From Protonemura montana (Eukaryota; Arthropoda; Insecta; Plecoptera; Nemouridae), in contig OX387604.1 in the NCBI GenBank assembly GCA_947568835.1, forward strand, positions 19,497,076-19,561,075: DNA of 64,000 nucleotides, given 5' to 3'. Each line of letters starts with the position of its first letter. Positions within the stretch are counted from its first letter, which is position 1. This document shows, piece by piece, positions 24,301 to 58,423 of the stretch. The notes beneath the pieces were generated by a model. The model did not search any database. It had not been told where the DNA came from and saw nothing but the letters and a program-made list of their open reading frames with translations. A program made the position numbers and the translations under genes.

Positions 24301-27300
24301 AGCTAAGGTAAGTGCAATGTTCATGATTCGCTCCAGCACTTGGAACCAGAAAGACTTTTCCCTTAACACTTGGGCTTCTTGGTCTCTGTCAACCGTCTTG
24401 TTTAGCCGCCACATGTCATACACTACACAGCAATCGTGATGAGTCGCACAATTCTCGTGGTCATCAATCTTTTCACCCAGCCTCCTCCAAGCTCTCACCC
24501 CATTCACCCACGCTAGGTGAGTGCGTGGATTTTCTCGTGGCGCAAAAAGCCAGCATGGCTCGCAATACACAGAGTCAAGAACTTCTGAATAACACAGCCA
24601 ACTCCGGGCTATTTTCACACCAGCTTTATTTGTTTTGTCATAGAAATAAGCAGAGAACCGCGCTCCCGTGGTTTTATCCCGCGGGAAAGGTCCCGTAGGT
24701 CGGCAAGATTCAGACGAAATGATAAATCTTTTTTCATCATCCGATAGAATATCAACGTCTTTGAAATAACCGCGGTCAGTAGGATTGATTCTATGCCGTA
24801 TATTGTCAAGAGTCTGCGTGGTATTGCTACTACTCTCAGGCTCTTGCATTTTGTCACCAAGGTTTTCGATTGATGTTGCATCACATTTGAAACCTTCATC
24901 AGCAACAACTTCGAAAGCAATGTTGTTCGCTGCAGCCTCGTCCGCACTTCCTTCCTCAACAACAGTGCTTCCAGTCGAACAGCTCGGCGTAGATGGCTTC
25001 ATGAAGGATGTTATTTTTGCCAATTTGTTACTCTCTGTAACTTCTTGGGCCTTTTTCTTCCTCTTCTGGGACCCGCTTAAAATCACACGTTTAGAGCTCA
25101 TCGCACACCGCAAATCACTATACTAGGTTAATCTAATTCAATCGGAAAACTAAATCGATAAATTGGAAATTAAATCACACGACAAAACACGGCATAACTC
25201 GTTAAACAAAACAACCACCATGGAAGACATACGCACACACCGAGCTCAATCAGCTAACTGACCGCCTTTGTTTACTTTTAGTATCATGGGTATCATGGGT
25301 AGTATCAATACTTTGAAGATACTGGGAAATTTCTTTCTTCCACTAAAGTCGGCATTTGTATATCAAACAAGCAAGCAAGTGCCTTCTTACGCTCACTTTG
25401 AAGACTGAGCCGGCTGCTAGACTGTGCTTTACAGGGATGCTTCAATGGAAGCTGATGGAAGTGTTTAGTATTTTATCTTGAAACTGTGTAGTGCAAAAAA
25501 AAACGGCTAAAATTACTGAGACCTTATCATTTAAAACATTGGAAATAATATCCACACTGTTGCATTGCTTTGTCGGCGCTGCCTTACAAAGGGTATGAGG
25601 CGCGCTGAGCTTGGCCAAGCTTAGGTATAGCTTTGCAAGCGCTTTTGCGTAGTCACTAGTCAGTATTAATATGTGCGAGTATATTGTTCATATTTTTATC
25701 AGAATGATTTGGTAAGATTCTTTGAACATTTGTAAGGCCTCACATATTGCCATTTCCAAATAAATGATTCACCAACTCTTGGAATCAGCACGTGTTTTTA
25801 TAGAATAGCGTTAGAAATATTGTCAGTTTATATCATATTTCAGGCAAATTAAAAATTCGGAAATCAGTAAAAACAAAAAAACGTCAAAATCCCAAGCTCA
25901 GGGGGGCCCCGCAGGGGCCCCCCTGAGCTTGGGGCCCCCGGGTGGCCCGGGTGGTAGTTACGCCCCTGGCTCCTCGTCTAGTCCTTGCTCTCTCAGTAGT
26001 TTCAAAACCAAGTCTTCAAATCTGCAATTTCTTATTACTCTTTCTTAGTTCTGCTTTTAACTCTACTACTTTAAATGGTAGTACTCTACTACTCTTGGTT
26101 TTTATAACTTTTTTTTTGTTAATTTACTCCCCGCTACAAATCAAGCTGCACTGCTCTGACTGCTTCAATCATTGGATATATTTTTCTTTAAAAGGATCCC
26201 AAATATCTCCTCCATATTCTAAAAGAGGTCTCACTAATGTAAGGTATGCCCTTTCCTTTGCTCTTTTTGCTTCTGTTTTTTAATATTCTCGGTACAAAGT
26301 GCAGCCTTTTAAATACTTTGCTAACGGCTTGCGTTCTCTGCTCCATCCGTGATAGTTTTGAGTCTAAAGTTATAATCCTAAATACTGAACGCTAGACTCT
26401 CTCTTCAAAACTGATATAATATATAATAATTATAGAACTACAATCAAGAAATGTTTTTGTTCAGTTAGTGCCAGTGAGTACTTAGCACTTTTCTTTGTTA
26501 ACTTTCAACCCAAGGCTCATTCGCTTATTAACACCTTGTCCACTGCTGTTGGCAACACAATTTGTTGATAATATCTCTGTAAATGATGCAATTATCTACA
26601 AAAAATCTTACATTACTATTTGTTATCTGCTATACTGTTTACATAAATGATTAATAGGAGAGGTCCCAGAACACTCCCCTGTAGTACCCCTGAAGTTATA
26701 CCTATTTTTTTAAAGAGCTCGTAATTATCAACTTTTACTTTCTGCGTTTTGTCTTTTAAGAATTCCTTTATCCATTTTGATACTCCTTTATCTAGTGGTA
26801 GGTTGAAATTTTTTTTAAGAGGGTTCAAACTGAATGTGGATATCCAAACTAGGGCAAATCTTTTTGCATTGCTTTATTCTCACGTGTTGCTGAGTCACTA
26901 ATAAAATACTCGAAACTATTATTCTGCAGGAAATTTGTGGGAAACTCGAAAAAACAAACTTTAAACTTTTTGTTGTCGCCTTCGGTTTCCTGAGAAGTAA
27001 TAGAGTTGAGTAATTTGCAATTTTTATTACATCTAAAATGCTAATCTTGAGAGGGTAACAAGTTTTCAGACATCTTACTTATATAATTTAAAATACATTT
27101 TTTTTAATGGTGTTAAAATTAGTATAAAACTCCGCTCGTGTTTCAATTCCGAAACCTCCCCAGTAAATACAATTTACTGCAATACAGCAATAATTTGTTA
27201 TTGTATACCCTAAAGCACGAAAATTTAAAAAATATTAGTCTTATCTCAATCAGGTAAATAGTGTCAACGAAACCGAAGTCAGCATAAGTCGACGTGCGGT

Positions 27301-39147: not shown

Positions 39148-42100
39148 CTAGAAGCAGAAAGCAGAAGATTACTTGTCGTTGCCTGTGGCCGACTTAGTTG
39201 GAATACGTGCTCTAACTTGGGCAGCAGCACCTTGGTACATCAACAATAGGTATATTCGTTGTGAGAGGAGCCATATTTAAGTCGTATTCCGTAAGAGGAT
39301 TAGATCGACAGAGCCGGTCGTTCTGGTTCATATCTCGACCAATTTTGATCCCAGCTAATCACCTGGATACGGAACGGCGTTGGTAGGAACCGCAAGGCTA
39401 TCACAACATTGATGCTTTAACGACTGCGAACTTAATAAAAATGAATATATCTGAATTGATCTTATAATCGTAAAATAACATGGTTAAACAATTGTTAGCC
39501 TAAATAATTACAGGATTTACATTCATATTTTTAGTTTACAGTATATAAAAACGACTTTTTGGCTTCATTATCCGTTAATTAAGGAATGCCGTTAACTTGT
39601 TTATACTTAAATTCAGTCAACACAATGTCCACAATGTTTCACAATTGCTAAAACCGTGCTCCCTTCCAAATACGAGCACAGAACAGCGACCCCTTTGTAC
39701 GGTGCAGAATACGACGCCCCTTTCCTGATCCTTACCAGACCTTTCGCTGGAAATTGTGGGTCCCCTTGGTTACGACCGGATTGACCGGATCGACCCAACC
39801 GGTGGATTAAGGAATGGCAGGCAGGTCAAACAGGTTAACCAGAGATATACGGAACGGGTCCCGGTTACGACCAGGGGAAGAATCATGTAACTTTTTCGTT
39901 AGAGATCACTAACGTTATCTCGGTAAATTCCAGTGGTATTACACGTTATTTAACGAGATAACGTTCGTGGTCTGCGAGTAAAAAGTTACTCGATTGATAC
40001 CCTGATCGATCTGAATACAACCTGATAAGCAAGCTTGTAGCTCGAAGCTGATAGCTCGTCCAGCTCGACGCGGAAAATCGAAACTTTGGGTTGATCAGAA
40101 CTGAACGCTTTTACTAAATCAGCTACTTGTTCTACTGGAGTCTGATGCAAGTGATGAAATACTGGGAACTGACGAAGGCGAATGCGATCAATGTCATTTA
40201 CTTAGATGCACCAAGTATGCCAGTTACGACAAAATGAAAGATGGCTAAAAAATACCATGTACTTTATACAGCACTAGAGGGCTGGAAGTTTTTGTGACGA
40301 CTTTGTCATGAATAACTTACTGGATAGTTGCACTGGAAGGGCTGGAAGTTGTTGATGCGTGACAAAGGGGTAGGGTCGCGAACCCATTGCAGTGCCTGCC
40401 AGTTGGTGACCAGCCACACGTCCGGCATGTTGACGATCGTGTCCAAGAACGCTTCGAATCCCTCCTTGTGGTGCGCTTGTGTGAACCAAGCTGCGTGGTA
40501 GAATAGCCCGAACGGCGCCCTGTAAAACACGTTCGGTCACAATCGCTCCAATAGCACAGCGAGCACAGTTATCGGCCAAATTCCCATGTTGTTCATCACT
40601 TAAACTTTGGGGGTGCTCTCACTTTTCAAAGATTGCAGCACTATCATCGGGACTTACGCACTATTTAGTATCATCAGTGCAGTTTGCAAATCATCAATTT
40701 GCAATTCTAACAATGCACTACCTTCAGCATAATTATTGATTTAAAAAAAAGAATAGGTTTCAAATAAAGCTGACCTGTTTGTGGTATAGTGTCGTTCAAA
40801 GTTTTTAATGAGCATTTTGTAGACTCCATCGGAGGTGGGTGGATTGCTGCAGGCGTCGCCCATCGAACAGCGACCTCCGTTCAAGTCTTGCCACATGACC
40901 ATCGGCACCTCCCACACGCCTGAAAAACACAACACATTCTTCCACAAAGCCAGAGTGACAGAAATTGTCCTAATTAATACTGACGTTCTAGGTCGGGGTT
41001 ATTGCTTGGTGCTATGGTGGTGCTAGTTAGCACGGTAGTTGCTTGGTGCTACTGAGGGTTACGAAACACTGCTCTGGGTCAAGGTTGCTGGGTGCTACTG
41101 TGGTGCTTGTTAGCACGGTTCTACTGACAGTAATACCAGGGTGATAAATCACTGCTCTGGGTTGGGGTTACTTCTTGGTGCTATGGTGGTGCTAGTTAGC
41201 ACGGTGCTACTGACGGTATTACCTTAGAGAGTAATACCAGTGTTAAGAGTGACCGTACTCATAGTACTATAGAAAAACAATGAGATTTTCTAAAAAAACA
41301 AAGTGTGGGTACCTGGGTAGGAGCGAGTTGGGCACGGAGGAATCATACAGTCGTGGAAAATCTTGTAGTCGAACGTGTATGGGTAGCTCGGGGGCTTGTT
41401 CTCGTAAACAGGCATGGAAGAATCATAGGTGAAGTTCGAATCATACAGCATCTTGAACATCTTGTTTCCTCCGACCTGATGAGAACAGAATAGTTTAGTA
41501 AGGAGGTTGGAGTTTTAGGAATTTCACTAATCTAAAACAAGTTCTTGTCGTAAAAGTGGTTGAAATACGACTTACTGATAGGAAAGGCGCACGCATTCCC
41601 CTAACGTCTTCAACGCGAACTCCCCCATATGCCGCCAAGATCTCGCGCTGTCCAGCAATTTCTCGTGTCCATTTCTTCTGCGAGAACTGTTCTCCAAAGC
41701 TGTGCCTGAAAGAGCAGCAACTCTGAGAATATGAACGATAGGTGCAATCATTTAAACCCTAAGTATAGTAAGTGCCTCACCTCGTCGACATGTATTCTAA
41801 AACTTTTGAAAATGAAGCAGTGTGTGGAAAACGTTCAGCACAGATTTTTTTTTAAATTTAATTACCGCATGGTGTTTTCAAATAAAAACTTTGTTTTTGC
41901 ACATTTTTTACTCTTTTATCACTTATCACTTGTTTTGCAAAATATCAAAAACAATAAAAATTAATTAACTTCGTGTAAACTTTCCTTTATCCACTGATTT
42001 TTTTTCAAGATTTTTTTTCAATTTCTAGGTCTAAATACGCCCGCGTGTGCCTCACCTGCTAGACATGAGCTCCATTGAATCAAGCTGTAGTAACCAGGGG

Positions 42101-45100
42101 AGTTTTGGAGCACCACATTCCACATTCAACATTAGACATTCTTTATTTCACGTTCCACATTTCACGAACCACCGAGGCACCGTAGAACCAAGGCACCAAA
42201 GCCAAGTTTGTTTACTTTATTAACACCAGCACCAGCTAGGCACTATACAAGAGATCATGCACTAGTTAAGAGATCAGGCACTAGATAAGAGACTGGAAAA
42301 CAAATCACTCTGTGTAGGTATTACCCGTGCAAGCCCAACCCAGTTTGGTCAACTCGTATGCTCCGATGTTTCACGTCCGTTGGATGTCACGACTTTTAAT
42401 TACAAGCACATTCCACACCGTAAAAGACCACTGGATGTTTTCACCGTCAGACAATTCTTATTATAACTCTTATTTCCTAAATATGGTCATGAAGGTTCAC
42501 GACGGGAATGCGCGATGTGGCCATGGTTTCAATTTATTAACACCTCGCTGGTTAATTATTAAGAGTGTTTATACATTTTAATAATCCCGAAATCGAGTAA
42601 TATTTTACCAAAAGTGTAAATTCATGTAATATTTTGTTTTCACCCTATGGTGCGTGACACAATAGAAATAGAAATAGAACAAGCAAGGCATGCATTTTGA
42701 GTACTCGATTCAGTGTGTGAGTATAGGACGAGCTTCAGGCAGTGCTGTAGTAGTAAATGCACGCGGGTGTACGCAGCCCACAACTATTTAAAGTTTGGCG
42801 TACCGCCGTTTACCCACGATTGACATGGCAATAAGCACAAGCATAGCACACAAGGATCTTGAAACTTGGTTATCATATGGGACTGCACACAATTGACACA
42901 ACGCACATAGCGAACACGAATAGAATTTAACGATGTTGGAAAATTCGAACTTCTTGTGTGCTGTGCTTAGTTCAGCCAACCACAGAGCTCTATTGAAAAA
43001 AAATATTGTGAACGATCTTTTCTGACCGATGAAATAGAACCTTTTTGAGTGCTCTGTTTCTAGATGATGTGCCCGTAGAGATGGTCAAAAACCATTGCTT
43101 TGTCAATTGTGGATAAACCTTTACAGAACTTTTTGGAACGCCAGGGAACACGGAGCGTTAATTGAATTTCACAAATGTAACCAATTTAACTAATTTCCCT
43201 AAGTCTGATGATGAAACCCGTTCAGAATATTACAGTACCCAGAAAAAAAATAAGAGCCAGCAATTTGAAATTCCTGTATACGATACAAGAATTCAACGTC
43301 GCTATAAAATTGTTGAAACTTGTTTGAATCAGCGTGAAACCCCTTTTTTGTCAGTATTACACTCTGTGCAGGCAGACTTACGAGACCGAATGTGAAGCCA
43401 TTTCATGGCCGTCAGCGTACAAGTTCTGCACTTGTCCGTAGTCAGTCCACTCGTGGGACACGTAAAAGGTGGCGGCTATGGGGCATCCATTTGGATTCAC
43501 GCGGCCCTTTTCGAAAAGGGAAGAGTACAAGCCCTTGTTGAGGTCGTTGACCGAGTCGTCGAAGGTCAGCATCACCAGTTGCGGTACCGACTCGGCGGCG
43601 AGGTCGCCTGTAGGGGGTGTAGGAGATGTAGGCGGTGTAGAAGATGTATCGGTAGGTGGGTGTGGAACGGTGTGTAGTCGTAGAGTCGGGTCGATGTTAG
43701 GCCCAGTATGGGTGCCCATGGAAGGAAGGAGTAACACAGGCAAGAGAACCGAAGTAACAGGAACAGAAAGCGTAGGAATTTCAAGGTAGAGTGCAAGAGA
43801 AAAAACAGAAACACGACAGTTAATAAGAGATAAAGATAGTTTTGGGTATAAGGCAATTAACCAAGAAAACAAACAAAACAAACAAACGAACGAACAAACA
43901 AACAAACAAACAAACCAACGATGGAACAAGCGTACGAAAAAGATACAGGGAAAGTAGAGACCCGTGGAAAGAAAGCTGAGCTAATGCGAGACGAGTGGCA
44001 CGTGGGAGACGAAGACGGAGACTCACGAGACTGAGTGGGACGCCATTTCGTGGCCGTCAGCGTACAGGTTCTGCACCTGGCTGTAATCTGTCCACTCATG
44101 AGACACATAATAAGTCGCAGCAATCGGGCAGCCGTTTGGGTTCACGCGGCCTTTCTCGAACAAAGAGCTGTACAGCCCTTTGTTCAGGTCGTTCACGGCG
44201 TCATCAAATGTCAGCAACACTATTTGCGGTACTTGTTCCGCTAGCAGATCACCTGGAATGATTTGCAAACATATATAAGGTTACTCCATATACCTTGACG
44301 GAAGCTCGGCCTTTTTCTTTACAAAGCTGGCTCATCTCCAGCCAGATTTTTCCGACGCCGGGCTCTCGGTTCTCTCGGTCGATTCTCTTGGCTAATGAGA
44401 CAAGAGCCTGTGTGGATTGTGGTCGTAGAACGGAGACGACGCTATGTACCACAAGTCACATCTCGAACTGTTTTTATGGTTAGTGATTCAGAAAGTTTCA
44501 ATTGAATGCAAGTGAAATGACCCCCATCGTAGGATTCAGCGAGGCCTGTTGGGCTAACATACACGTGTTTGGATCACTGTAGATACCACGCACGTAGGTA
44601 GTTAACTAAATCGAGTTGGGTCGGAAATCTTACCGGGGATGTCTTTGCCTCCGCAGCTGCAGTCTGGGAGAAGACAGACGTCTTTGCGGCATTTCGCAGC
44701 AGTCTTGTCAACATGGGGAGTCGCATAGACAGGTTCCGGCCTGTGGGATTAACGCCATGGTCAGACCGTCAGATGCATGCCTAGATCAAAGTAATGCCAC
44801 GTAATGTAAATTATTTAAACAAATTACTTACCGGCTCGCTGCACCATTTCTGTAAATGTCGACAAACTCTTGGGCCTTGGAGACGATCGCCGTTGAGGGT
44901 TTTAGAGTTGGCCGAGATCGTCTGGGATTTAGAAAACATTTCGATTATCTATAAGGGACACTGCAAAACTTCTCTGCCGGACTTCACTGCCGAACTTCGC
45001 TGCCAAATTTCGTTTCCAAACTTTGCTAAGAAACTTCGCTGCCAAACTTCGCTGTCAAACTTCGTTGCCAAACTTCACTATCCAATTTGACTTTTTTTTC

Positions 45101-48100
45101 AGGTCAATGCTGCTAGAGGGGTGGACATGTTCGAGGGGTGGACATGTTCGAGGGGTGGACATGTTCGAGGGGCGGAGATGTCCAGTTTATGATGGAAAAG
45201 GGTAACTCACGTTACTGGAGGTGCCGTGCCACGATTCGGTGTTTCGCTGTGCCCCGTGGGGAACGAGCCGCTCCCGCGGTTCCGTACTGAACCCCTGTAA
45301 ACAATACAGCGTCAATACCTCATCAATACATCATAAATAACCTATCAAAACAGCACTTATATAATTATCAACAGACACCGTATGATGAAATGCCATGCGC
45401 CGGAGAACGAATAGGAGAAGTCAGAGATGCTAGCAGTTTTCTCAACAGAGCATGCAACGCTGAAAATTCTTCGCCAAGCGTTCTCTGCCGAACACCGGTT
45501 CTATATTGAAGCGGAAGCGGAGACATAATATGCAAGCAAAATAATCAGTAGATTGGCGCGCCTTTAAACCCCACTATTCATTCATTCAAGCAGCTAGATG
45601 CAGTTGATATAGCAGATGCAGATGTTGATGATGTTGATGTTGACTTCTCAAGACGTCGTTATGACATGCCATAGATCAGGGGTTTCCAAACATTTTTGCT
45701 CCGTTTCCCCCTTCATCAACGTTTAGAATATATTCCCACCCTTGGTAAAAAAAGCCAGCGTCGCAAAGATACGACACGAGTAGGAGTAATATATGAAAAG
45801 CTCTTTCTGCTACTTTTGGGTAAGAATTCCACATTTAGCATTAACATTTTGTGATTAATTTATCTTTGAAATTCCTCCTGGAACTCGCAAATTCCTCCCC
45901 AGGGCTAAATTCCTCCCCGGTTGGGAACATAATGAGAACATAAATGAATGAATGAACATAAAGTGAGAAAATAATGTTTTCAGAGACAAGCAGCCAAGCA
46001 GCTTCTCAAGCAGCCCAAAAACACGCTTTGTACAAGGCACAAGGCATAAAGCATAGGGCACAAGGCACGAGGCACAAGGCACAGGGCACAAGGCACAAGG
46101 CACAAGACACAAGGCACAAGGTACAAGGCATAATGCTATCTGTTGCTGCTGTCACAATCTACAATTTTCAAAATTATTTGAGATATGAGCAAAGTGGTAA
46201 AAGAGAAGAGCTTGCCGGCGGTTTTCGAATGGAATCAACTGGAGGTCGTCTTGTCTTATGTCTTGTCTTGGGTCTACTTTATAGCTAGAGTTTCTTAGAG
46301 GGCTAGACTGAGGTATAAATTGGAAGATAATGGTCGATAATGGTCGACCATGGTCGACAATTTTTACAGTGTAAAAGCAAAGAGCAGGAAGAATTCGTGC
46401 TGCCACCCATACTTTGACGTGAGCTGGGTTAGAAAGATGATCATATCTATGGTTGGTTGTTTGATAGCTTTATGGATGCGATCGATGCAGCTCGAAGATA
46501 GTTCCAAACATGAGTCGTTTTGAGAAAATCCAGAAAGCATGTGGTAAGTAGTGAATGAAATATCTGTTTGGTGATTGTTCATAACTAGCCTGTAAAGCTC
46601 TAACGCGAAACAAGAGTCAGGATTTCATGAAATTTCACCAGTCCAGAAAGCTTTTTTGAAAATCATTCTTTGAGATATGATTACAATAATTTGAAACTGT
46701 ACCTATGCGGTGGATCTTTGCACGATTTCTGTTTGCCTTGACATTTGTGAGCGCTTATTTCGGACAATTCTGCAAGCCCACGCGGCGCCAGTGTGCTCCT
46801 TTCTGTTCCGTTCGGGACGTCGGGGACTTCCAGGACTTCCGGGACTTCCGGGACTTCCGGGACTTTGGTTTTCACAGTGAAAATACTCGGTTGGATGGAG
46901 GGATAAGTGCTAAAGGGCTCTTGATTTTCAATACCACTTCGATTCTTCCCCCTAAGCCGGTTTCGAGCCTCAATTTTCTTGGATGACGGCCCGGTGCTAC
47001 TCGCGTATTCGCCGACCACTCGACGACGAGAATACGTGACTGGCACAAACGGCTCACTCGTCGTCGTCGAGTCTGGAAGGGCCTGCGAGGCCTGCAAGTC
47101 TGCTCTCGACTTCTGGTCTCGAGCAAAGTTTCTCATCGAAAGATTATTCGCTTTGGAACGTCTGGAAGTCGTTCGGTTGACTAGTTCCGAGGTGGTGACG
47201 AGGGGCTTCTCCTTGGCTTCGTTGTGCTCTTTGATAGCAACGATGACTCGCTTCGGGCCGCCCCCTTCGGGGCCCCTCTCGGGTTCTCCCTCGGCAATCG
47301 GCGAGAACGCAGCTTTCAACAACACGTTTCGAACGCTGTGACCCGCCACTGGGCCGCCACTGGGCTGCCACTGGAGCTGTGGTTGGGGTTGGGGTTGAGG
47401 TTGATGTTGGGGCTGGGGCTGGGGCTGGGGCTGGGGCTGGGGAGGCGAGCTTCGAAGAGGCTCAATACTCGGACCATGTGACTGCACCATCACCCCCACC
47501 TCCGACCTAGATTTTGACTCTGACTCTATTCTGCAGGAGGAAAGAAAACACCATCTCAAAAAAAACACCAAAGCGTTCTTTGCCTCGTATCACGTGCCTG
47601 CAGCCAAGTAAATATTTACATGATTTACAGTTTAAAGTTGAATGCATTTTACATCTCAGCGTGAGCTAAAAATGTACTCATATCCGTGAAACTATGTTCG
47701 AAGTCAAAGTAACCAATTGTCACACACAACCAATTGACGACTCCCTGGGCAAGCAAATCGAGAACTGAGCAGATATGACGATAGAGTTGGTGTGCAGTAC
47801 GTCTGCAGCATGATGGCATTATCGACGTCAATATCGAGTGAAAAGTGGCTAAAAATTGAACATTGTGTCACTTGTAGCAACGGTGCGATTCACTGAAAAC
47901 AGCTGTTGTAAAATTTGGACTTGTGCGGGCCTGTAAAGTTTGGAGCGTTTGGACAGTTTGGAACAGCGATCCACGAACAAATAATAATAAACAAGATAGG
48001 GCCATGAACGCTTGTGTTGGTTCAATCTTGTTCCTCTCTATTGTACTCGGGATCAACTGAACTGGTTAGTCAACACTGTAAATATTGAGACACTGGAAGG

Positions 48101-51100
48101 AAAACAACTATTAATTGCATGCATTGCACACGTATTCGTCAACACCAGCCGATAAAAGGCCATAAAACGAGCAAAAACAAGGAAATGTTCAATTTCCCTG
48201 CAATTATCCAATTGCCTGTATTTGGCTAGTGTAGTCATATTTAGCTTGCGTGACTTCACATAAAAAGTCCGAAAACTGAAAAAGTCTAAAAAAATGTGAC
48301 TGTGTTCGTAAAAAACATAAATAATTTGTGAATTTTAATAGAAATACCAAAGATGATAAAGATCAAGGTCATACCGATTGGGCGTGGTTTTGGCAGGCGT
48401 CGGCTGCCGCGCGACCGGCTGGTACTGCACCAGATTGTCTGTTTGCTGAAACATAACACAAAACGCAAACTTAGATGCAGGCTAAAATAATTTCTTAGAT
48501 GCATTCGGAGAAAGAAAATCAGAGAGTTCCTAATACAAGTCGCATTATCAGTGGCATAACTACCGACGGGAAAGACGGGGCGACCGCCCCCGAGCTCAGG
48601 GATTTGTCCCCGATAGGGTGCCCCACGAGCATTAGCTCGTGGGGCCCGCCAGTAGGGTATGCTAGATATGCGGTGCATGCCCACTTGAAATGCCCCACGA
48701 CCTATTTTTATTATATTATTCCTAAAATGTTTGGCCGGTTCACAAATTTCGCTGTTTCAGAAAACCGAATTGATGTCTATTACAGGAATAGTTTCTTTGA
48801 CATCGGCGAAAATACGCAACTATGCAAGCGCGGACCGCTTGAAGAGCCCAACGTTCGAAAGTCATATTTCCCGTATTAGTTGGCACTCCTGAGAAAAACG
48901 TTCTATCGAGTATATTTACACACGAGAGAAAAACGTACTATCGAGTACATTTTATAACGTTACCGCAAAAATGAAGCAGCCGATCACATAGCCTTTAAAG
49001 GATTGCTTTACCCATAACCGTGATCTACTTATGATAGCGTTTTGTGCAATGTATAGCGATGCTAATTGATCGATTTGATCGATTTGATCGATTTGATCGA
49101 TTTGATCGATTTGATCGATTTGATCGATTTGATCGATTTGATCGATTTGATCGATTTGATCGATTTGATCGATTTAATGCATTAATGAGGTCTGCAAGTT
49201 CGCAGTACATACCTGGTGCTGGCTGTTGTAGTTGTCGAAGTCACCGGTATTAGCGCTGACCGTTGCCGTATACACGCCGTGATCGCCGTACGCAGGTACG
49301 ACTAGCGTGCTGCGCTGATCGTGCGCAGCGGGAGCAGCAGCTGGTACAGCAGTGGGCATAACAGCGGGCTTGTAGCTAGCCTGCGCCCCGCTCGTTGGAA
49401 ACTGTCCGTAATCTGGCAAACAAACGATGACATCACTACCAATGCGTCGCATCTCTGGAGTCACGAGTCATGAATGTTTCGAATGGCTTGAGAAAACGTT
49501 GAAATAGCTGAAATATCGGTTGTATCACCAGGAAACAGCCACACAACTTTTTTTTAGAGCACAGGAATGAACAACAATGATCACTCTGGGAACTATTTTC
49601 TTAGTGGCGATAACGCTAACAATTAAAGACAACAAATTTCAATTTCTCTAACGAAATGTTGCGTGCATCGCGCTAGTTCAGTATTACATCACCTAATGAA
49701 AATAAAAACCCGAAATTTTACGATTTCAGTAAATAAATTGGTATTGCTTGATTCTAGTAGATTCTAGCCGACTTGGAATCACACTTTTCGCGTATATATT
49801 GACGATTCTATATAATTTAAAAGCCACAAACATGTATGACTTGTAAACTATTTAAAAGTGCGTTAATATCTCGGCAGCTACGAGATAAGCTCCATCGCAT
49901 CGCTTGGCGTCGAATCGGGACAAGCGATAAAGTTCTTCTTGACATTTATCAGCCCGACGTCTACCAAACATTAGGGATGCAGACCTTCACGCGGTCAGAC
50001 TTTTAGGGTGACTACTGTAATGTAATGTGGTGGCTACTGTAGTATGATGTATGGGCTTCTGAGGTTTTTAGTATAATCTGGTGGCTTCTAAGGTGTAATG
50101 TGGGGGCTACTGTAGCATAATGTGGTAGCTACTGAAGTATAATGTGGTAGATACTGTAGTATAATTTGGTAGATACTGTAGTTTAATGTGGTAGCTACTG
50201 TAGTATAATGTGGTAGATACTGTAGTTCAATGTGGTAGCTACTGTAGTATAGTGTGGGACTACTGAGGTTTCTGGTATAATGTGGGGGCTACTGAGGTTT
50301 GTAGTATAATCTGGTGGCTTCTAAGGTGTAATGTGGGGGCTACTGTAGCATAATGTGGTAGCTACTGAAGTATAATGTGGTAGATACTGTAGTATAATGT
50401 GGTAGATACTGTAGTTCAATGTGGTAGCTACTGTAGTATAGTGTGGGACTACTGAGGTTTCTGGTATAATGTGGGGGCTACTGAGGTTTGTAGTATAATT
50501 TTGTGGCTATTTTGGGGGCTTACTCACCGATATCCCTGTACAACTCGACGTCTTCGTCATAGAGGCTGTAATACGGGTCATATTGCGCTGAGGCTGACTC
50601 GTACTGGTTTGTATCGTTGTAGTAACTTGCTTTGGTCGGCGCGGAGACAGGTTCCACCCTGGAACAAGGTCGTATTCTCAGCTACACCGCACGTAGAGGC
50701 GGTGGTGCGTCGTAGAGCAACGTTTCGCTGCTAAGTTACCTGATTGTCGTCGAAGCGGGCCTTCTAGTGACTTCGCCTACGTCTGTCTCTCCCCATGCTG
50801 TCGTCTCGCTATAGTCAGTGTCGGTCGGTCTGGCGCTTGCTTTGCGCTTGCCCGTGCTTGCTGTGGAGGGGGTGGGGGTGGGGGTGGGAGAGGGAGTGGT
50901 AGTCGTTGGTCGTCGGCGGAGTGGGTGAAGCGTCGTCTTATGTCGTCCGTTCGTCACTGTCTCCGTCTCCGTCTTAGCTCGATTCAACTTATTCAGATTT
51001 GCTAGTTCCACGACCGGCTCGTGTGACTTGTTTTTATTCTCATCGTTTTTTAAGGTTGTGATTTGAATATGTTTGTATGTTAGAGCTGGGGCTGAAGAAT

Positions 51101-54100
51101 GTCGGGAGCTTTGGGAAGTACTTGGGAAAGTGCTTGTGTATTCGATTTGCAGAGGCTTTACTTCTTTGCGTGCATCCTTCAATTTGATCTGAGGCCAGCG
51201 GGTTCCAGCATTGGCATCGACATAGTCATTTTCATTGTAATTGTCATCATAATAATAATAATCATCGTCATCTTCATCGTCATCGTAGTAGTAGGGCAAG
51301 TTATTTCTGTACTTCAAGCTCTCTTTACTTGATGCTCTTTTCCCTTGTGCGAATTTGTCGGCTTTGCCTGTTTGAGGTTCGGCGTGTTTTGTTGTTTGTT
51401 CACGGTCTCTCTCTCTCTCTCTCTTGGATGTCGAACCCGAACTTGAGCCCGACCCCTTCGAGGGATGTACGTAGTACTGGCCGTCCTCTGCTTGGTAGAA
51501 CGGTGCTGTCAGCAAGCTAGGCTTGCCGGGGCTGTCTTGCTCGCGCGTTGACTTTCTTACAGCCGGGGTCGGGGTGTACGCGACGGTTGTTTCTTCGTTA
51601 TCTTCATATTCTTTGTTGACGGGAACTCGTGCGCTCGACGGCCGTCGCCGCCTTTTCACTGGCACCGTTCTACTTGCAACTTCTCGGTCCAGCTGCCGGC
51701 TTGGCCCAGTTACACTTTGATAGTAATACGTGACTGGAGTTGTTTGGAAACGTTCTGGAGTTGTCTGCGACCGCTCCGAAGAAGCTTCGTAAGGCTGCAC
51801 ATTCGGTTGTTTCGGTTGTTTTGGTTGCTTCGGTTGCTTAGTAGCTTTCGTGGACGGATAGCTCTCAATGGTACCGTCGTTAGCCTGTAACTCTGCCCGT
51901 AATTTTGGCAGGGTTACGGAGGGTGCTGTACTCGTCGACACTGCAGGCTTTTCCGTTTTCGGGCGTAACTTTTCAATGTACTTATCGAAGTCAAAGTCAA
52001 TGCTTGCGAAAGGATTTTCAGGCTCCTCGTACTTTTCCTGACCATGGTTGAAGAACTCGGACGGGGGTCCGTTGAACTGATCATACTGCTCGCGATAGTT
52101 TTCGTGATTGTCTTCATCTTCATCTTCGTCCACTTCTTGGTCGTCTTGGCCTCGATTGCTCTTGCCGGTCGTCTCAACGTGTTCGGTTGTGCCGGGACTG
52201 TCGTTAGGGCTGATGTAGCTGGCGACGGGCGAATTTGCTGCTGGAGGCACCAGGTAGTCTCGTGGCTTGTCACTTTCTTTCTGAGCGTTGCTGGTTCCCC
52301 CATCTGTGTCGTACACCTGGTGGGGCTGCTTTTGCCGCTGCCCATTTCGTTGTTCCGGCTGATCCAAGTGGTAGTACGAGTAGTTATCGTCGCCTGTCTT
52401 TGTATTCTTTGCGTTCTTATCTGTATTGCCTGCCTTGCCGTTCACTATGATAGGCACGAACTTGAGGTTGGGGCTGTCTATGGTGATTGCTTTGAACTGT
52501 TCGCCGAGCTGGTGGCGCGGGGGAACAATTGGATTGAACGAGTTTCCTCCGAAAGTAGTTGAGGTACTCGACGAGGCAGCACTCGTGGGCCCACTTTGTG
52601 CGGGGCTAGGCTGTGGTCGGTGACCTCTCTGTGGGCTCGAGTGGAGACTCGCGCTTGGCTCATGAGTTTGGTGAGGTTGGTGAGGTTGGTAGCTCTGTGG
52701 CGCTCCTAGTGTCACTATTCGCGGCGACGGTTGTTGTGGGGGGCGGTTAGAACGGTTTGGCGAGGAGGAAGTTGCAGTAGCGGAGTTTCTGGGTAAGCTG
52801 GGATCAGCGATCGGTCGGAAGTACTCTTCGGAAGGAGATACTGGCTGAGAGCCAGGGGAAGAACCAGGGGACATGAATGACGCTACTTGCAAGGGTCGAG
52901 TCTCTCCAGGATACCTGATGTTGGCCCATGGCATTGTTTGTGTGATGATATGAACCGGAAAAAAATGAGAAAAAACTAAGTAAATAAGAGTATTTTAAGC
53001 AATTTTTGAGTAAGCATCTCTAGGCTGTGAAACCATGTAATTTTGATCTTTAAGATTTAAATGATTCTTTTACTTATATCTCTATTTAATTTTTATTATT
53101 TATTTCTTGTAGCGTAATTATATTTTACTCGGCAAGTATAAAGATGCTTGAAGGTGCACAACTTTTGAAATGGGTTATTTACTAAATAATTATTACAGCA
53201 ATTTACTACTGAATATGAAGAAAGTGTTACTGCGCCTTTCACCCTTTCAAGTTTCCACCTATAGCGGTTCGTTAGTGCAGTGCAGTTTTAAGGACCAGGT
53301 TCCCCCAGCAGGTGCCCCAGATGCTCCTAACTGTCAGTGTTAGTAGCACCTGAAACGTCACCTGACAAACCACAGAGCAGTTGACTAGAACGAATAAACA
53401 ACCGAGTAGGAGTGCAGAGGGGTGCACCTGTTATCTGAGTTACATAACAGTACGTTGGCTGATCGTATGAAACTGAAAGAGTGAACGGTGCGAATCTGAA
53501 GTCAGCACAAACAAGAAACGTTTGACACAAGAAACGCTTTGAAGAGTTTTGGCCAAGTTGAGTTAGATTGTAGTTGAGATACGTGAGAAGGTTACGAAGT
53601 AACAGTTGAGGTTACGAAAAATAAACCGAACCAGAGTGGAGAATGCTTTTTACCTGAACCGTATTTGGCGTTTCAATCGGCGAAGGTTGTCGATATTGTT
53701 GATTTTTTTGATTCTGTTGATTTGGTTGATTTGGTTGATTTTGTTGATTTTGTTGATTTTGTTGATTTGGTTGGTATCTAAGTCGGCGTCGTGGTGGTCA
53801 TGGAGTCTCATCAGGTCTTTGCTAGTCGGTTGGAAATCACCCAGATCAGCTTCACGTGTAACAACACTGGAGCCAAGTGCTATCTGAGAGAACTTGCTAC
53901 TCAGTGTCATAGTGCCAATTACCTTGTGGGACATTCTGCAGGACTCGAGAAAATGCTTACCTACCTACCTACCTACCTAGCGCTTGCTAGGCCAGAGGCA
54001 TTTTCTAGAGCGGCCTTTTGGCAGTTCTACCATGGTGCTACATCATTCAACCGGTGATGTTATATAACCCTGACCGAGCGTAGTACAACAGTACTAAAGG

Positions 54101-54729: not shown

Positions 54730-57700
54730 CTGTAGGTTTCCAAACAGGACTGCACCAGTTTTGTCACCATTTGAAATGCGAGCTAGGTGTGTCTGAAATC
54801 AATCAACCTCGCTGAAACGCATTCAAGTACGTCCCCCATAAAGAGACCACACGGCCGACAATAAGCGTTAATGAGACAAACTGAGTTCATAGCATTCTCT
54901 AAGCTGCTTCCGGCACGTGGTTGACACGTATTTCACACATAGTTCACTCGTGATTCTCGTTACAAACACACAAATTGAATGAGCCGAGGTTTCCACGTCT
55001 TAATAACATAAAGAGACAGATGCAGGTCGCTGTCTAGAAAGCTGACAAGTTAAAACAAATTTGCCCAGTTCTATCTGATTTTTAGTTATCTGCTTTATTT
55101 TCATCTATTTTCGTCAAACGAACAACGAGAAAATGTTTCATTACATGATTCAACTCTTGTAAACGAGCTGCTACCTTTCTTTTCTTTTTATCAAAAGCAA
55201 TTAACAAACATTCCCTTCATACTCCCTATGCGCGCAGCGGTCCATTTGGACAGACTTGAGGGGGTCTAAAATTATTCTAAACGATCTGAAAAAAATCAGT
55301 GTAATTAGTGTAATTAGACTATGGTTGCTATGGTTGCTATCGGATCAAATTGGGATATTTTGAAAAACAAAGATGGGATGAGTTTTTGAAAAAGAGCTAA
55401 ATTGTACATATTTGACGTATTTGTTTAGTAAAACCATAAGTTAAAACGAAAAATTAAATGTTAGCAACCCTCACCACAGCCTTTTCTTAAACACTGTTTT
55501 TTTTTTTAGATTTTTCGAACAAATTTAGACCCCTAAAAGTCTGACTGTAAAGAACGACACCCTGACCTTTGGGTAGAAACCTCCACCGAGATAGTTGACA
55601 TGCGTGCCTTGGAACGCTGCCGAGACGTGATAAGCTTAAGATGCTACAGATTCCAAAACTTCGTGTTACTTCGAAAAACTTTGATAAACTATGTTTATTT
55701 AAGTGCGACTTTTCTTACAATTATTTTATAAGAATTTCTATTGCGCAAATGTTGCTAAGTTTTAGATTTTACTACAAAACTAGATATTTTTAGTGCATGC
55801 TTAAACTTAGCTTTTGTCTACAACGCTCTTAAGATGTAATGTTTTAAGGAGTTAAGCGTGTGCACTGAAAGGTAGAATGTGTTTCAAGCAATAAACAAAA
55901 TGAAGTGATAAAGACTCATATTGCAGTGGCCAAGGGGCTGGAAACTGTGCTAGTAAATGCAGGAAATGCGGGAAATGCGGTGGGAAAATGTACCGGCAGT
56001 GCGTTCGAGCTGTGGTGTCGAAAGTCTGGGTTTTGCCCCAAGGTTACAGTGCCGGGCTGCCCTCGGTAGACTCGTTGCTGTCTGTCAGTCTCCTCCTCTT
56101 GAATGCCATCTTGGACACCACTCAGGTACACCTGCTGCAAAGATACTATTTGTCAGATTCCTCATCTTGAACACCCTCAAGGGGATCTTCTTGCCGCTTC
56201 TTTCCTGTGGCATTTTACCAAAACACTTTGGTCCATGCATTTTGAAAAAAAAATCGGTATTTAGCGACCCTTAGCAATTGCGTAAAATTTGATCGTCATT
56301 AAATATGGTCCGCACATTCTGATATCTATCTAATGTGATTCATTACTCTGTGATCCAGTCTAATCCAGTTTTGTTGAGTACCTTGTTGAGTTGATCGGGC
56401 TGTCGTCGCTGTTGTGTCTGCGAATGAGCGGGCCCAACGTTTTGCCGGGACCTCGAGTCCGAGGGGCGCGTCACTCCTGAGGACGTGGTCTCTCCTTCAA
56501 TCGCAGTGCCGCAGCCAACATTTCGCGGCCAGTCACACGTCTGAAGCTCTTGACTGAAAGACCAATTAAGTGTAATCAAGCGCAATCAAGTGGCATCAAG
56601 CGCAATCAACTTTAAACAAGCGCAATTAAGTGCATTCAAACGCAAAAAAGTGCATTCAAGCTCAATTGAAGTTGCTTATGACTAAGACTCTAAAATTATA
56701 TTTTGAAACTATGTCTTGTAGTTCAATAAAGCTTCGCAGAAATGTTTACATCAAGGTTCACTGCATTTTTTTAGATAAAACGTCTTTATCTCGGTTGAGT
56801 GGTGGTTTTTAGAGCCATGGTTTGATGTTATGATATGTTTTTCAGATATGCTCTGCATTAAAGAGGTTTGCGACCCTCGATACGTCGAGACGTGAGACCC
56901 TTTCGAGGGCCGCAAACCTCTTCAATGCAGAGCATATCCGAAAAACACATCATAACATCTTTATCTCGATTACGTACGTTTTGCATATCATGTATTGTTA
57001 TCTCCCGGTAGGTCCAATTTTCAGGAGTTGCCCATTCTTATAATTCAAAAAATATATTTTAGAATTGTGTCTTGTAGTTATATGAAGCTCTCCAAAATAT
57101 TTTCCGGTGGGCTTCGCAAAACTTTACGAGATACAGTGTTTTCTGCATTACAGTGCTATCTTGCCAGTGCAGGTAATGGGCGCTTATTTCAACCTAGATG
57201 AAATATTTTTATCTTAAAAACTTGCGTGAATCCCGGGCCACTTTTTGGAGATCTTTATATAACTACAAGGCACAATTCAGAAATATATATTTTTTTCATT
57301 TAAAGCATGAGCAACTCCTGAAAATTGGATCGATCGGGAGATAACAATCTGAGCTAAGCTGATTAACATGCAAATCCTACGCAATTTGTATAAAATAATT
57401 TTTATCTTACAAACTGGTGCGAATCCCATCACGAAACGTTCATAGAAGCTTAATCGGTTCTCTGGTGACGCTCTGTTTAATTTTAGTGAAAATAAAAATA
57501 TGGGCAATTTATTTTTTATTTATTTGGGATATGATAATAAATCAAAGGAAGTTTTTTTTAGTAGCAATCTTTTTTTTATTCCCACTTATTTGAAATTTTC
57601 TCAGCTTCCCACTGGTATTTTTAATTTTTCGTTATCTTTAACGGATCTTTAGATATAAGCCCAAAAACTTTGGATTGCGCAAAAGTGCACCCAAAATTGC

Positions 57701-58423
57701 TTAAAACTTCGAACGGTTACTGCGCATGAACAGTACAAGAGAGATATATATTTTTTTCAAATGAGTTTGTTCTGTCCCATATCTACTTCATGCGCAAAAA
57801 TACTTTTTTTTTTTAAATACAAAATTGTCGGGTTTTATGCTGTGTTGATTTGAAGTGGAATGACCCATAATATAATATAATATAATATAATATCTACATA
57901 TACATATACAAGTGGTGTGGCCGATAAGTTGTATCCCCTAGATATAGACCTGAGTAAGTTTCCACTCCAATAGCCAAAGCAAATTATGATTTTCAAGCAT
58001 ATTTTGCATATCTATCTCAGCAGACCGAGTTTCGGTTGCGGCCTGAACGAATGTGACTTGAAGTTCTGTGAAGTCAGAACAGTCAAAGAAGTCAGTCGAA
58101 CAGTCAGAAGTCGAACAGTTAGTAACAAGTTGCTATTAATGATACAGAAAATGGTTTTCAGTTCTGCAATCCATGAGTAAATAGACTGTCTTGCACCATA
58201 GAGTGGCTTGTTTCGACCGAATGGAGGCGTTTGATTACCTACCTATACATGAGGCCGCCTGTGCACGACTCGAGGAGCGCGCCCCCAAAGACACACACGT
58301 AGTACATGGTGCAGTCAGATGGGTGTTGGTAGTACCCAAACTCTTCGGGACAGTCGAACTCCTTGGCCACGTTCACCCCTGCGCCGAGACGAGCCCTGCG
58401 CTGTCCATTTACACCTTTGCTAC
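38986..58423 (-). CDS. CDA5: Chitin deacetylase, group IV (CDA5-type)
   Basis: This is a secreted, metal-dependent NodB-family (CE4) enzyme that removes acetyl groups from chitin in cuticle or gut lining. Exons in transcript order: 58243-58423, 56382-56553, 55994-56134, 54653-54729, 53654-53896, 50740-52914, 50528-50658, 49213-49412, 48375-48445, 46703-47530, 45211-45294, 44832-44921, 44634-44740, then 44027-44252 or 43382-43607, 41576-41705, 41313-41475, 40775-40919, 40321-40519, 38986-39147. Phases agree throughout and give about 1,840 codons without a signal-peptide exon. The order is a six-Cys chitin-binding domain, a linker of over 1,200 residues rich in Pro/Ser/Thr/Gln, then the NodB domain. 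There is no LDL-A module, which separates group IV from groups I and II. Catalytic motifs seen are TFDD, HSxxH (split by a splice site), RAPF, the YPGVWEVPM region, and APFGLFYHAAWF. The acceptors of the 54-kb and 53.9-kb linker exons are the least certain. Confidence 0.9.
40321..40519 (-). CDS. CDA5: CDA5 exon with NodB motif 5
   Basis: It encodes APFGLFYHAAWFTQAHHKEG and NMPDVWLVTNWQALQWVRDP, the end of the catalytic barrel. The donor is CCA/GTAAGT. Confidence 0.93.
40775..40919 (-). CDS. CDA5: CDA5 exon GVWEVPMVMWQDLNG
   Basis: It encodes VWEVPMVMWQDLNGGRCSMG and DGVYKMLIKNFERHYTTNR. It joins the preceding exon at a Gly codon (YPG/VWEVPM), giving the substrate-contacting W-E-V-P segment. 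Confidence 0.93.
40985..41226. repeat. Tandem repeat GGTGGTGCTAGTTAGCACGG in a CDA5 intron
   Basis: About three copies of a unit near 90 bp carry GGTGCTATGGTGGTGCTAG and TTAGCACGGTGCTACTGAC. A further copy lies at about 54290-54380 in another intron of the same gene. Confidence 0.7.
41313..41475 (-). CDS. CDA5: CDA5 exon VGGNKMFKMLYDSNFTYDSS
   Basis: It encodes the core barrel stretch from VGGNKMF to DYKIFHDCMIPPCPTRSYP. The DxxxxHDCxxPPCPTRSYPG pattern is typical of arthropod deacetylases. Confidence 0.93.
41576..41705 (-). CDS. CDA5: CDA5 exon with RAPF motif
   Basis: It encodes HSFGEQFSQKKWTREIAGQR and VRVEDVRGMRAPFLS. Its first His completes the metal-binding HSxxH whose HSVS part comes from either alternative exon. 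RAPF is NodB motif 3. Confidence 0.93.
43382..43607 (-). CDS. CDA5: CDA5 alternative catalytic exon A
   Basis: This 226-bp exon (phase 1 in, phase 2 out) encodes GDLAAESVPQLVMLTFDDSV, CPIAATFYVSHEWTDYGQVQ and GHEMASHSVS. It holds the catalytic Asp pair (TFDD) and the metal-binding HS. It differs from exon B at about seven of 76 residues, including Ser instead of Ala after TFDD. It lies downstream of B in transcript order. Confidence 0.92.
43862..43917. repeat. Microsatellite (AAAC/AACG)n between the alternative exons
   Basis: AAACAAAC tracts, mixed with AACG units, lie in the 419-bp intron that separates exons A and B. Confidence 0.85.
44027..44252 (-). CDS. CDA5: CDA5 alternative catalytic exon B
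   Basis: It has the same length and phases as exon A and encodes GDLLAEQVPQIVLLTFDDAV, CPIAATYYVSHEWTDYSQVQ and GHEMASHSVS. The TFDDAVN form is the one usual in the family. Including both exons would add 226 bp (not a multiple of three) and break the frame, so the two are mutually exclusive. Confidence 0.93.
44634..44740 (-). CDS. CDA5: CDA5 exon leading into the NodB domain
   Basis: It encodes PEPVYATPHVDKTAAKCRKD and VCLLPDCSCGGKDIPG, the CxxxxCxLPDCxCxGxxIPG entry sequence of deacetylases. Confidence 0.92.
44832..44921 (-). CDS. CDA5: CDA5 linker exon
   Basis: It encodes RSRPTLKPSTAIVSKAQEFV and DIYRNGAASR. The frame is fixed by matching phases on both sides. Confidence 0.75.
44957..45180. 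repeat. Two minisatellites in a CDA5 intron
   Basis: A unit of about 19 bp (CTTCGCTGCCAAA-like) runs over 44957-45085. A 17-bp GTGGACATGTTCGAGGG unit is repeated three to four times at 45118-45180. Confidence 0.75.
45211..45294 (-). CDS. CDA5: CDA5 linker exon
   Basis: It encodes GSVRNRGSGSFPTGHSETPN and RGTAPPVT. It is low-complexity and polar, supported by phase and splice sites rather than conservation. Confidence 0.7.
46031..46130. repeat. Minisatellite GGCACAA
   Basis: AAGGCACAAGGCAC-type units run for about 100 bp in the 1.4-kb CDA5 intron 45295-46702, which otherwise shows nothing recognisable. Confidence 0.8.
46703..47530 (-). CDS. CDA5: CDA5 large linker exon 2
   Basis: It encodes 276 residues of linker: SSPPQPQPQPQPQPQHQPQP, a basic central part, and PEVPEVPEVLEVPDVP repeats from a 9-bp array (46799-46865). 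It begins ATAGAGTCAGAG after CCTGCAG and ends CATAG/GTACAG. It is likely disordered and extracellular. Confidence 0.85.
48375..48445 (-). CDS. CDA5: CDA5 linker exon
   Basis: It encodes QTDNLVQYQPVARQPTPAKT and TPNR. The splice sites TTTCAG and CG/GTATGA and the phases fit the neighbours. Confidence 0.75.
48549..48890 (+). mobile_element. Non-autonomous hAT-like element
   Basis: It starts CAGTGGCATAACTACCGACG, then the GC-rich GGGGCGACCGCCCC also found at 6010-6035 (inverted). Its interior matches 250-460. The right end and target duplication were not found. Confidence 0.5.
49066..49175. repeat. Microsatellite (GATCGATTT)n
   Basis: A nine-base unit is repeated about twelve times, ending about 40 bp from the donor of the CDA5 exon at 49213. 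It reads NRS on the minus strand but lies outside the exon. Confidence 0.95.
49213..49412 (-). CDS. CDA5: CDA5 linker exon
   Basis: It encodes YGQFPTSGAQASYKPAVMPT, VPAAAPAAHDQRSTLVVPAY and GDHGVYTATVSANTGDFDNY. It is polar and Ala/Pro-rich; the donor is CAG/GTATGT. Confidence 0.85.
49995..50512. repeat. Minisatellite TGTGGTAGCTACTGTAGTAT in a CDA5 intron
   Basis: A unit of about 22 bp is repeated over 500 bp with variants, and a block of about 190 bp within it is duplicated (compare 50060-50280 with 50295-50480). Confidence 0.85.
50528..50658 (-). CDS. CDA5: CDA5 linker exon
   Basis: It encodes VEPVSAPTKASYYNDTNQYE and YDPYYSLYDEDVELYRDI. It is Tyr- and Asp-rich. Confidence 0.85.
50740..52914 (-). 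CDS. CDA5: CDA5 giant linker exon 1 (725 residues)
   Basis: This 2,175-bp exon starts YPGETRPLQVASFMSPGSSP after a CATCAG acceptor and ends in AATCAG/GTAACT. It is rich in Ser, Pro, Thr and Gln, with acidic blocks (DEDEDEDNHE), a Tyr/Asp run near 51210-51300, and a QPK repeat near 51800. It has no known globular domain. A long open frame of this length and the matching phases support it strongly. An ATG at 52934 lies just upstream in the same frame and might serve a shorter isoform without the chitin-binding domain. Confidence 0.9.
53654..53896 (-). CDS. CDA5: CDA5 linker exon with INK repeats
   Basis: It encodes KFSQIALGSSVVTREADLGD, FQPTSKDLMRLHDHHDADLD and an array of INK/INQ units from a nine-base repeat (53697-53770). 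The donor TTCAG/GTAAAA joins RFR to YPGET in phase. The 5' edge is uncertain: GAGTAG (53896) fits the phase of the polyQ exon; CTCTCAG, 15 bases later, is the alternative. Confidence 0.6.
54653..54729 (-). CDS. CDA5: CDA5 polyglutamine exon
   Basis: A CAG/CAA run lies between CCTACAG and AATACAG/GTACCA. In the phase set by the preceding exon it encodes about 24 Gln and a Tyr. It could instead be an intronic microsatellite with chance splice sites. Confidence 0.4.
55994..56134 (-). CDS. CDA5: CDA5 linker exon
   Basis: It encodes QVYLSGVQDGIQEEETDRQQ, RVYRGQPGTVTLGQNPDFRH and HSSNALP, phase 0 at both ends. The acceptor is TTTGCAG and the donor CCG/GTACAT. Confidence 0.6.
56382..56553 (-). CDS. 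CDA5: CDA5 exon: end of chitin-binding domain and linker start
   Basis: QELQTCDWPRNVGCG supplies the fifth and sixth Cys of the chitin-binding domain. A Ser/Thr/Gln-rich stretch (GETTSSGVTRPSDSRSRQNV) follows. The acceptor is CTTTCAG, phase 2. Confidence 0.9.
56824..56959. repeat. Hairpin with 57-bp arms in a CDA5 intron
   Basis: Arms 56824-56880 and 56903-56959 are inverted copies with about five mismatches and a 22-base loop. GATATGCTCTGCATTAAAGA is part of the left arm. Confidence 0.9.
56994..57352. repeat. Inverted repeat with arms of about 105 bp
   Basis: The left arm (56994-57100) and right arm (57247-57352) are imperfect inverted copies containing CCAATTTTCAGGAGTTGC and TTGTAGTTATATGAAG-like segments. 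Together with the hairpin at 56824 this forms a foldback cluster. Confidence 0.75.
57405..57868 (-). mobile_element. Foldback element relative, end GGGTCATTCC
   Basis: Inverted GGGTCATTCCACTTCAAATC at the right edge matches the left end of 16072-16840. The left part (AGCTTAATCGGTTCTCTGGT) matches 16765-16790. Confidence 0.45.
58243..58423 (-). CDS. CDA5: CDA5 exon: chitin-binding domain (first four Cys)
   Basis: It encodes EFDCPEEFGYYQHPSDCTMY, YVCVFGGALLES and CTGGLMY. With the next exon the six-Cys spacing of CBM14/ChtBD2 domains is complete. The acceptor is CTTGTTCCAG with a long pyrimidine tract, so a further 5' exon must exist. Confidence 0.92.

What the first reader, a model, noticed from the sequence alone, without database searches (positions are those of the whole stretch)
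43382..44252. Mutually exclusive catalytic exons in a CDA5-type chitin deacetylase
Two tandem 226-bp exons with identical phases (1 in, 2 out) encode alternative versions of the NodB segment carrying TFDD and the first metal-binding His. Because 226 is not a multiple of three, use of both or neither would break the frame. About seven of 76 residues differ, some next to the active site (TFDDSV versus TFDDAV, TFYV versus TYYV). Alternative exons are known in insect CDA2 and CDA5 genes as far as I recall. Here it is the catalytic core that is exchanged, so the isoforms may differ in substrate or activity.
Basis: partly seen in the sequence, partly recalled or inferred. Interest (0 to 1): 0.75.

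Follow-up and report, generated by a model that had tools for sequence, protein, structure and literature searches.

The report
Swappable catalytic exons in chitin deacetylase
A cuticle-enzyme gene carries two interchangeable versions of the exon that builds part of its active site, both kept nearly unchanged at the protein level for a very long time, so the animal can probably make two slightly different enzymes from one gene, although no RNA was available to prove it.

Summary
On the minus strand, exon A (44252-44027) and exon B (43607-43382) are 226 bp each, with the same phases (1 in, 2 out) and GT-AG borders. They are identical at 171 of 226 nt and 69 of 76 residues; their flanks are unrelated. 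Both exons together, or neither, give an early stop before downstream introns. CBM_14 plus CE4, no LDLa found and a very long linker fit CDA5, group IV. Both copies have been under purifying selection: one neutrally drifting copy gave 7 or fewer residue changes in 0 of 5000 simulations, and synonymous codons are as randomised as independent draws. So the pair is old and neither copy is a decaying relic. Catalytic base and zinc ligands are the same in both, so isoforms should differ only subtly. Mutual exclusion is inferred; no transcripts or related species were available. Alternative exons are published for CDA2, chitin synthase 1 and CPAP3-C, and isoforms for CDA5; the same genome also has tandem exon pairs in its CDA2-like gene and, twice, in chitin synthase 1. 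Verdict: real, well supported, new member of a known kind, moderately interesting.

The parts
44027..44252 (-). alternative exon A (226 bp, phase 1 in / 2 out), CE4 segment with LTFDDAV and first motif-2 His
43382..43607 (-). alternative exon B (226 bp, same phases), CE4 segment with LTFDDSV and first motif-2 His
44634..44740 (-). constant upstream exon (ends CSCGGKDIP plus one base)
   Evidence: GT-AG borders, open frame into A or B
43608..44026 (-). 419-bp intron between A and B, U2-type ends, with a TTTG-rich tract
41576..41705 (-). constant downstream exon (supplies the second zinc His and motif 3 RAPF)
   Evidence: alignment
41313..41475 (-). constant exon, CE4 domain continued; the stop arises here if A and B are both skipped
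40775..40919 (-). constant exon, CE4 domain continued
40321..40519 (-). constant exon, end of the CE4 domain (LFYHAAW region)
58240..58422 (-). exon with the first half of a CBM_14 chitin-binding domain (approximate borders)
   Evidence: PF01607, E 2.2e-8, profile positions 1-37 of 53
56511..56537 (-). CDWPRNVGC, second half of CBM_14, by motif only
50736..52994 (-). open frame of the long linker exon (752 codons stop to stop; exon borders not set)
   Evidence: no Pfam family
46681..47589 (-). open frame of a second linker exon (302 codons stop to stop; exon borders not set)
   Evidence: no Pfam family

Best explanation
The gene is a CDA5-type (group IV) chitin deacetylase of an arthropod. An old tandem duplication of one internal exon gave exons A and B, and each mRNA uses one of them between 44634 and 41705. 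Shown: identical length and phases, intact splice borders, frame break if both or neither are used, CE4 domain restored by either, long-lasting purifying selection on both. Inferred: exclusion is by regulated splice-site choice, with both-in and both-out products stopped early and probably removed by nonsense-mediated decay; both isoforms are active zinc deacetylases with the same catalytic residues, differ subtly around the active site (position 207 next to the zinc Asp, 236, and 246 four residues after the cleft aromatic; BmCDA1 numbers by alignment), and are used in different tissues or moult stages.
For: Exon anatomy and frames. Neutral-copy simulation 0 of 5000. At 69 codons for the same residue 38 differ, against 41.1 (95% 34-48) for independent draws from this gene's codon usage, so synonymous memory is gone while 69 of 76 residues are kept. 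PF01522 above its cut-off with either exon (41.3 and 43.8 bits, cut-off 23.1). The two solved relatives found, BmCDA8 and BmCDA1, align over the whole domain, E about 5e-68. A genome search with exon B returned 5 matches: B, A, and one each in a CDA1-like, a CDA2-like and a tentative CDA4-like gene (such counts are lower bounds). The same genome has tandem homologous exon pairs in the CDA2-like gene and in chitin synthase 1; pairs of this kind are reported as alternative in insect CDA2 (PMC9632012, passages) and Drosophila kkv (PMC3315501, passages). CDA5 isoforms are reported for Tribolium, Drosophila and Diaphorina (PMC9632012), and a Drosophila Cda5 isoform shift during wing cuticle formation (PMC4883753, figure legend).
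Against: No transcript evidence. No relative was found in viral contigs or genome contigs, which hold no arthropod genomes by design, so sharing with other species is untested. Exon A is slightly closer to the CDA1-like paralog than B is (40 versus 37 of 76) and B slightly closer to BmCDA8 (35 versus 34 of 67); neither means much.
Confidence: 0.85

Rival explanations
1. The isoforms are real but functionally equivalent: the pair serves regulation of amount or of place (for example through unproductive both-in or both-out products) rather than making a different enzyme.
For: Catalytic base, zinc ligands and cleft aromatic are identical in A and B, and four of the seven differences (exon residues 4, 7, 11, 13) lie before TFDD. 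Both-in and both-out give early stops. For Tribolium CPAP3-C exons 5a and 5b, loss of one is at least partly compensated by the other (PMC3504105, passages).
Against: Seven differences are present although the rest of the protein is held constant while synonymous sites are randomised; two of them, 207 Ala to Ser and 246 Ser to Gly, change residues shared by this genome's CDA1-like and CDA2-like genes and BmCDA1. For CDA2, isoform-specific knockdowns differ in effect (PMC11719712, passages).
Confidence: 0.35
2. Only one exon is used in normal mRNA; the other is a silent duplicate kept similar by chance or gene conversion.
For: No RNA available; high residue identity could in principle come from conversion.
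Against: One drifting copy never gave 7 or fewer residue changes (0 of 5000). Conversion would also erase synonymous differences, but these are saturated (pS 0.81) and the longest identical run is 16 nt. Both copies keep the same splice borders and phases.
Confidence: 0.06
3. An assembly artefact, or two alleles placed in tandem.
For: Tandem near-copies can arise from unmerged haplotypes.
Against: Flanking introns are unrelated, and the exons differ at 55 of 226 sites with saturated synonymous change.
Confidence: 0.01

Closest known systems
Insect CDA2 alternative exons 3a/3b
   Same: Chitin deacetylase gene with one alternative exon of two (PMC9632012, passages; PMC13302401, passages); this genome's CDA2-like gene has a tandem pair of 128 and 113 bp.
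   Different: The pair in this genome's CDA2-like gene encodes the second half of CBM_14, not the catalytic domain.
Chitin synthase 1 (kkv) exons 7a/7b
   Same: Chitin pathway; tandem mutually exclusive exons in Drosophila whose choice changes in muscleblind mutants (PMC3315501, passages); this genome has a 177-bp pair.
   Different: Another enzyme; here the length is a multiple of three, so the frame does not enforce exclusion.
CDA5 isoforms of Tribolium, Drosophila, Apis and Diaphorina
   Same: Same gene group; isoforms reported or marked in a table (PMC9632012, passages).
   Different: The passages read do not say which part differs between the Tribolium, Drosophila or Apis isoforms, so whether they are this exon pair is unknown; Dixit et al. 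2008 is not held.

Membership tests
CDA5 / group IV arthropod chitin deacetylase | CE4 domain with TFDD and HSxxH | tested here: met
   PF01522 41.3 and 43.8 bits; TFDD and HSVSH with either exon; motif roles from PMC6463723 section 6
CDA5 / group IV arthropod chitin deacetylase | one CBM_14 domain, N-terminal to CE4 | tested here: met
   PF01607 first half, E 2.2e-8; second half by motif CDWPRNVGC; that these exons belong to one transcript is inferred from strand and order
CDA5 / group IV arthropod chitin deacetylase | no LDLa domain (against groups I and II) | tested here: met
   two LDLa patterns: 0 hits in six frames of the window, one site each in L022 and L023, 0 in L024; Pfam confirms the two sites. 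A split LDLa could be missed.
CDA5 / group IV arthropod chitin deacetylase | long protein with long linker | tested here: met
   752- and 302-codon open frames without Pfam family; BmCDA5 is listed as 2415 aa (PMC6480692 Table 1)
CDA5 / group IV arthropod chitin deacetylase | clusters with other CDA5 in a tree | not tested
   no arthropod CDA5 sequences were at hand
Mutually exclusive exon pair | tandem homologous exons with the same phases and borders | tested here: met
Mutually exclusive exon pair | both-in and both-out products are non-productive | tested here: met
   premature stops in both
Mutually exclusive exon pair | transcripts with either exon and not both | not testable with these tools
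   no RNA data
Mutually exclusive exon pair | a known exclusion device (steric, U2/U12 mix, competing RNA pairing) | tested here: inconclusive
   419-bp spacing and U2-type introns speak against the first two; pairing not convincing

The most novel reading that the evidence does not exclude
The chitin matrix genes of this animal form a set with paired exons (CHS1 twice, CDA2-like, CDA5), so that synthesis, binding and deacetylation of chitin could be switched together between two cuticle types; and the CDA5 switch exchanges active-site surroundings in one of only two CDA genes, of the four found here, that keep the motif-1 Asp pair and both motif-2 His.
Probability: 0.15. Interest if true: 0.65.

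Novelty: new member of a known kind. Interest (0 to 1): 0.42.

Why it matters
Partial deacetylation of chitin is thought to set cuticle mechanics, and group IV CDAs have unclear roles: knockdown has no visible effect in Tribolium and Locusta but is largely lethal in two planthoppers (PMC8325873, passages). A long-kept pair of alternative active-site exons gives one possible reason why gene-level knockdowns are hard to read, and two defined isoforms to express and compare. The seven residue differences, set against fully randomised synonymous sites, name the positions to test.

Tried and rejected
Relatives outside this genome: viral contigs and genome-contig scans with the 279-aa catalytic domain gave no relative. 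Sharing across species is therefore untested.

Dating by synonymous change failed because pS is 0.81, beyond the Jukes-Cantor limit; the codon-draw test took its place and gives no age in years.

RNA pairing between introns: five comparisons, no convincing competing pair. Splicing-factor motifs: no TGCATG within 400 nt before A, between A and B, or 400 nt after B; two deep in the 1676-nt downstream intron. YGCY in the A-B intron: 6 seen, 9.5 expected from its base composition. A shared regulator of the four exon pairs was not seen.

Literature: ten searches. No title or abstract start in the lists shown names mutually exclusive exons in the catalytic domain of CDA5; some searches found far more papers than they listed, only openly licensed papers are held, and I read passages, not whole texts, so this is no claim that none exists. 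ApCDA5a/b of PMC11719712 are group V proteins by that paper's own account and not comparable.

Species: the mitochondrial contig C34 has a gene order that I recall as the ancestral pancrustacean one; the species was not identified.

Full report
WHAT IS THERE. They share 171 of 226 nucleotides and 69 of 76 residues. Of 55 nucleotide differences 10, 4 and 41 fall on codon positions 1, 2 and 3. Outside the exons similarity falls to 2-10 of 20 per block, best at the splice sites. The upstream constant exon is 44740-44634, leaving one codon base; the downstream constant exon is 41705-41576. Either exon alone gives an open frame through the CE4 domain; A+B stops inside B, and skipping both stops in exon 41475-41313. 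Further introns follow both stops, so decay of such products is expected (inference).

WHICH GENE. The CE4 domain made with either exon passes the Pfam cut-off of PF01522 (41.3 and 43.8 bits against 23.1) and aligns end to end with the two solved relatives found, BmCDA8 (5Z34) and BmCDA1 (5ZNS), E about 5e-68. Far upstream on the same strand lie the two halves of a CBM_14 domain (58.4-58.2 kb, E 2.2e-8; 56.5 kb by motif) and long open frames without a Pfam family. No LDLa pattern occurs in the window although the same patterns find LDLa in the CDA1-like and CDA2-like paralogs. This is the published layout of group IV, CDA5 (PMC6480692 passages; PMC13302401 passages). The exons were assigned to one gene by strand, order and frame, not by a transcript, and no tree was made.

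IS IT MORE THAN CHANCE. If one copy had drifted freely (28 random substitutions), 0 of 5000 simulations gave 7 or fewer residue changes and two thirds carried a stop. At the 69 codons coding for the same residue in both, 38 differ; two independent draws from this gene's codon usage (1135 codons) differ at 41.1 on average, 95% range 34-48. So synonymous sites keep no trace of common origin while 69 of 76 residues are kept. The pair is therefore old, and both copies have been held to code for nearly the same protein. Recent gene conversion is unlikely; the longest identical run is 16 nt. An absolute age cannot be given.

WHAT DIFFERS BETWEEN ISOFORMS. In BmCDA1 the base is Asp205 and the zinc ligands are Asp206, His261 and His265 (PMC6463723 section 6). 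A and B both supply the residues aligned with Asp205, Asp206 and His261; His265 comes from the constant exon. The seven differences lie at BmCDA1 positions 192, 195, 199, 201, 207, 236 and 246 by alignment. Position 207 follows the zinc Asp: Ala in A, in BmCDA1 and in this genome's other three CDAs, Ser in B, Gly in BmCDA8. Position 236 is Tyr in A, BmCDA1 and the CDA1-like paralog, Phe in B, BmCDA8 and the other two paralogs. Position 246 is Ser in A, BmCDA1 and two paralogs, Gly in B. Tyr242, the one exposed hydrophobic residue of the BmCDA1 cleft (PMC6463723 section 6), aligns with a Trp common to A and B. A subtle effect is therefore likelier than a change of reaction. No structure was modelled.

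HOW EXCLUSION COULD WORK. The introns around the pair are GT-AG without U12-type starts, and A and B are 419 bp apart, so neither steric crowding nor spliceosome mismatch is likely. Exon B has the more pyrimidine-rich acceptor (19 versus 16 of 25) and a GTAAGT donor against GTGAGT of A; B may be the default exon (inference). Five intron-intron pairing scans gave nothing firm: z from +1.6 to -3.6 with 20 shuffles each, and the best was matched by 3 of 100 shuffles on repeat. Regulation by trans-acting factors plus removal of faulty products is my best guess.

CONTEXT IN THE GENOME. In the genome (258 Mb, 34 contigs) exon matches show three further CDA genes (lower bounds): CDA1-like and CDA2-like genes about 13 kb apart on C1, both with LDLa, and one on C16 that I call CDA4-like only tentatively (no CBM_14 was found by Pfam in the fragment tested). 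By translation only the CDA1-like gene and CDA5 keep the motif-1 Asp pair and the motif-2 His; the CDA2-like gene reads TFNG and VFSLTH, the CDA4-like gene TFDG and GTETIS. Among the 5 matches to exon B, only CDA5 has two. The CDA2-like gene has a pair of CBM_14 half-exons (128 and 113 bp), which I take for the published 3a/3b pair (inference; PMC9632012). Chitin synthase 1 has a C-terminal pair (177 bp each), which I take for the known 7a/7b pair, and a second pair of 306 bp in the HPQEFWC segment.

COMPARISON WITH WHAT IS KNOWN. Alternative exons are published for CDA2 (PMC9632012, PMC13302401; passages), kkv/CHS1 (PMC3315501; passages) and CPAP3-C (PMC3504105; passages). CDA5 isoforms are reported for Tribolium, Drosophila and Diaphorina, and marked for Apis in a table (PMC9632012; passages). 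The Tribolium forms appear as TcCDA5a and TcCDA5b in a figure legend (PMC11595049). None of the passages read says which exon differs in them. As the pair here is old, it may well be the source of those isoforms. Hence 'new member of a known kind', with a fair chance that the pair itself is already known in insects.

VERDICT. Observation confirmed; mutual exclusion very likely but inferred; functional difference plausible and probably modest.

Noticed in passing
L032 (G000:C1:17696000-17705000), minus strand, about 5471-5166 and 4910-4605: Chitin synthase 1 has a second tandem pair of homologous exons, 306 bp each, 52% identical over 100 residues of the HPQEFWC segment, besides the C-terminal 177-bp pair. 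I recall no report of this pair; no literature search was made for it.
   Followed up: partly
L032, the 255-bp intron between those two exons: Three TGCATG hexamers (Rbfox-type by recall) 35 to 68 nt upstream of the second exon; the background of 0.30 per kb per strand gives 0.08 expected.
   Followed up: partly
L022 (CDA2-like) and L024 (CDA4-like, tentative): Both paralogs lack zinc ligands by translation (TFNG...VFSLTH; TFDG...GTETIS), so only two of the four CDA genes found look catalytically complete. This may be usual for these groups; not checked.
   Followed up: no
L022 about 5030-4441, minus strand: The CDA2-like gene has two tandem CBM_14 half-exons (128 and 113 bp, both 2 mod 3), like insect exons 3a/3b.
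   Followed up: yes
window 23536-25122, minus strand: Open frame of 528 codons with DUF4371 (PF14291, E 1.1e-17), probably transposon-derived (by recall).
   Followed up: no
G000:C4:5760925-5762262 and C4:5776811-5777755: Two long COX1 matches in nuclear contig C4, one with the same score as the mitochondrial contig C34, and four weaker ones on C12, C4, C16 and C3: nuclear insertions or, for the best, an assembly join.
   Followed up: no
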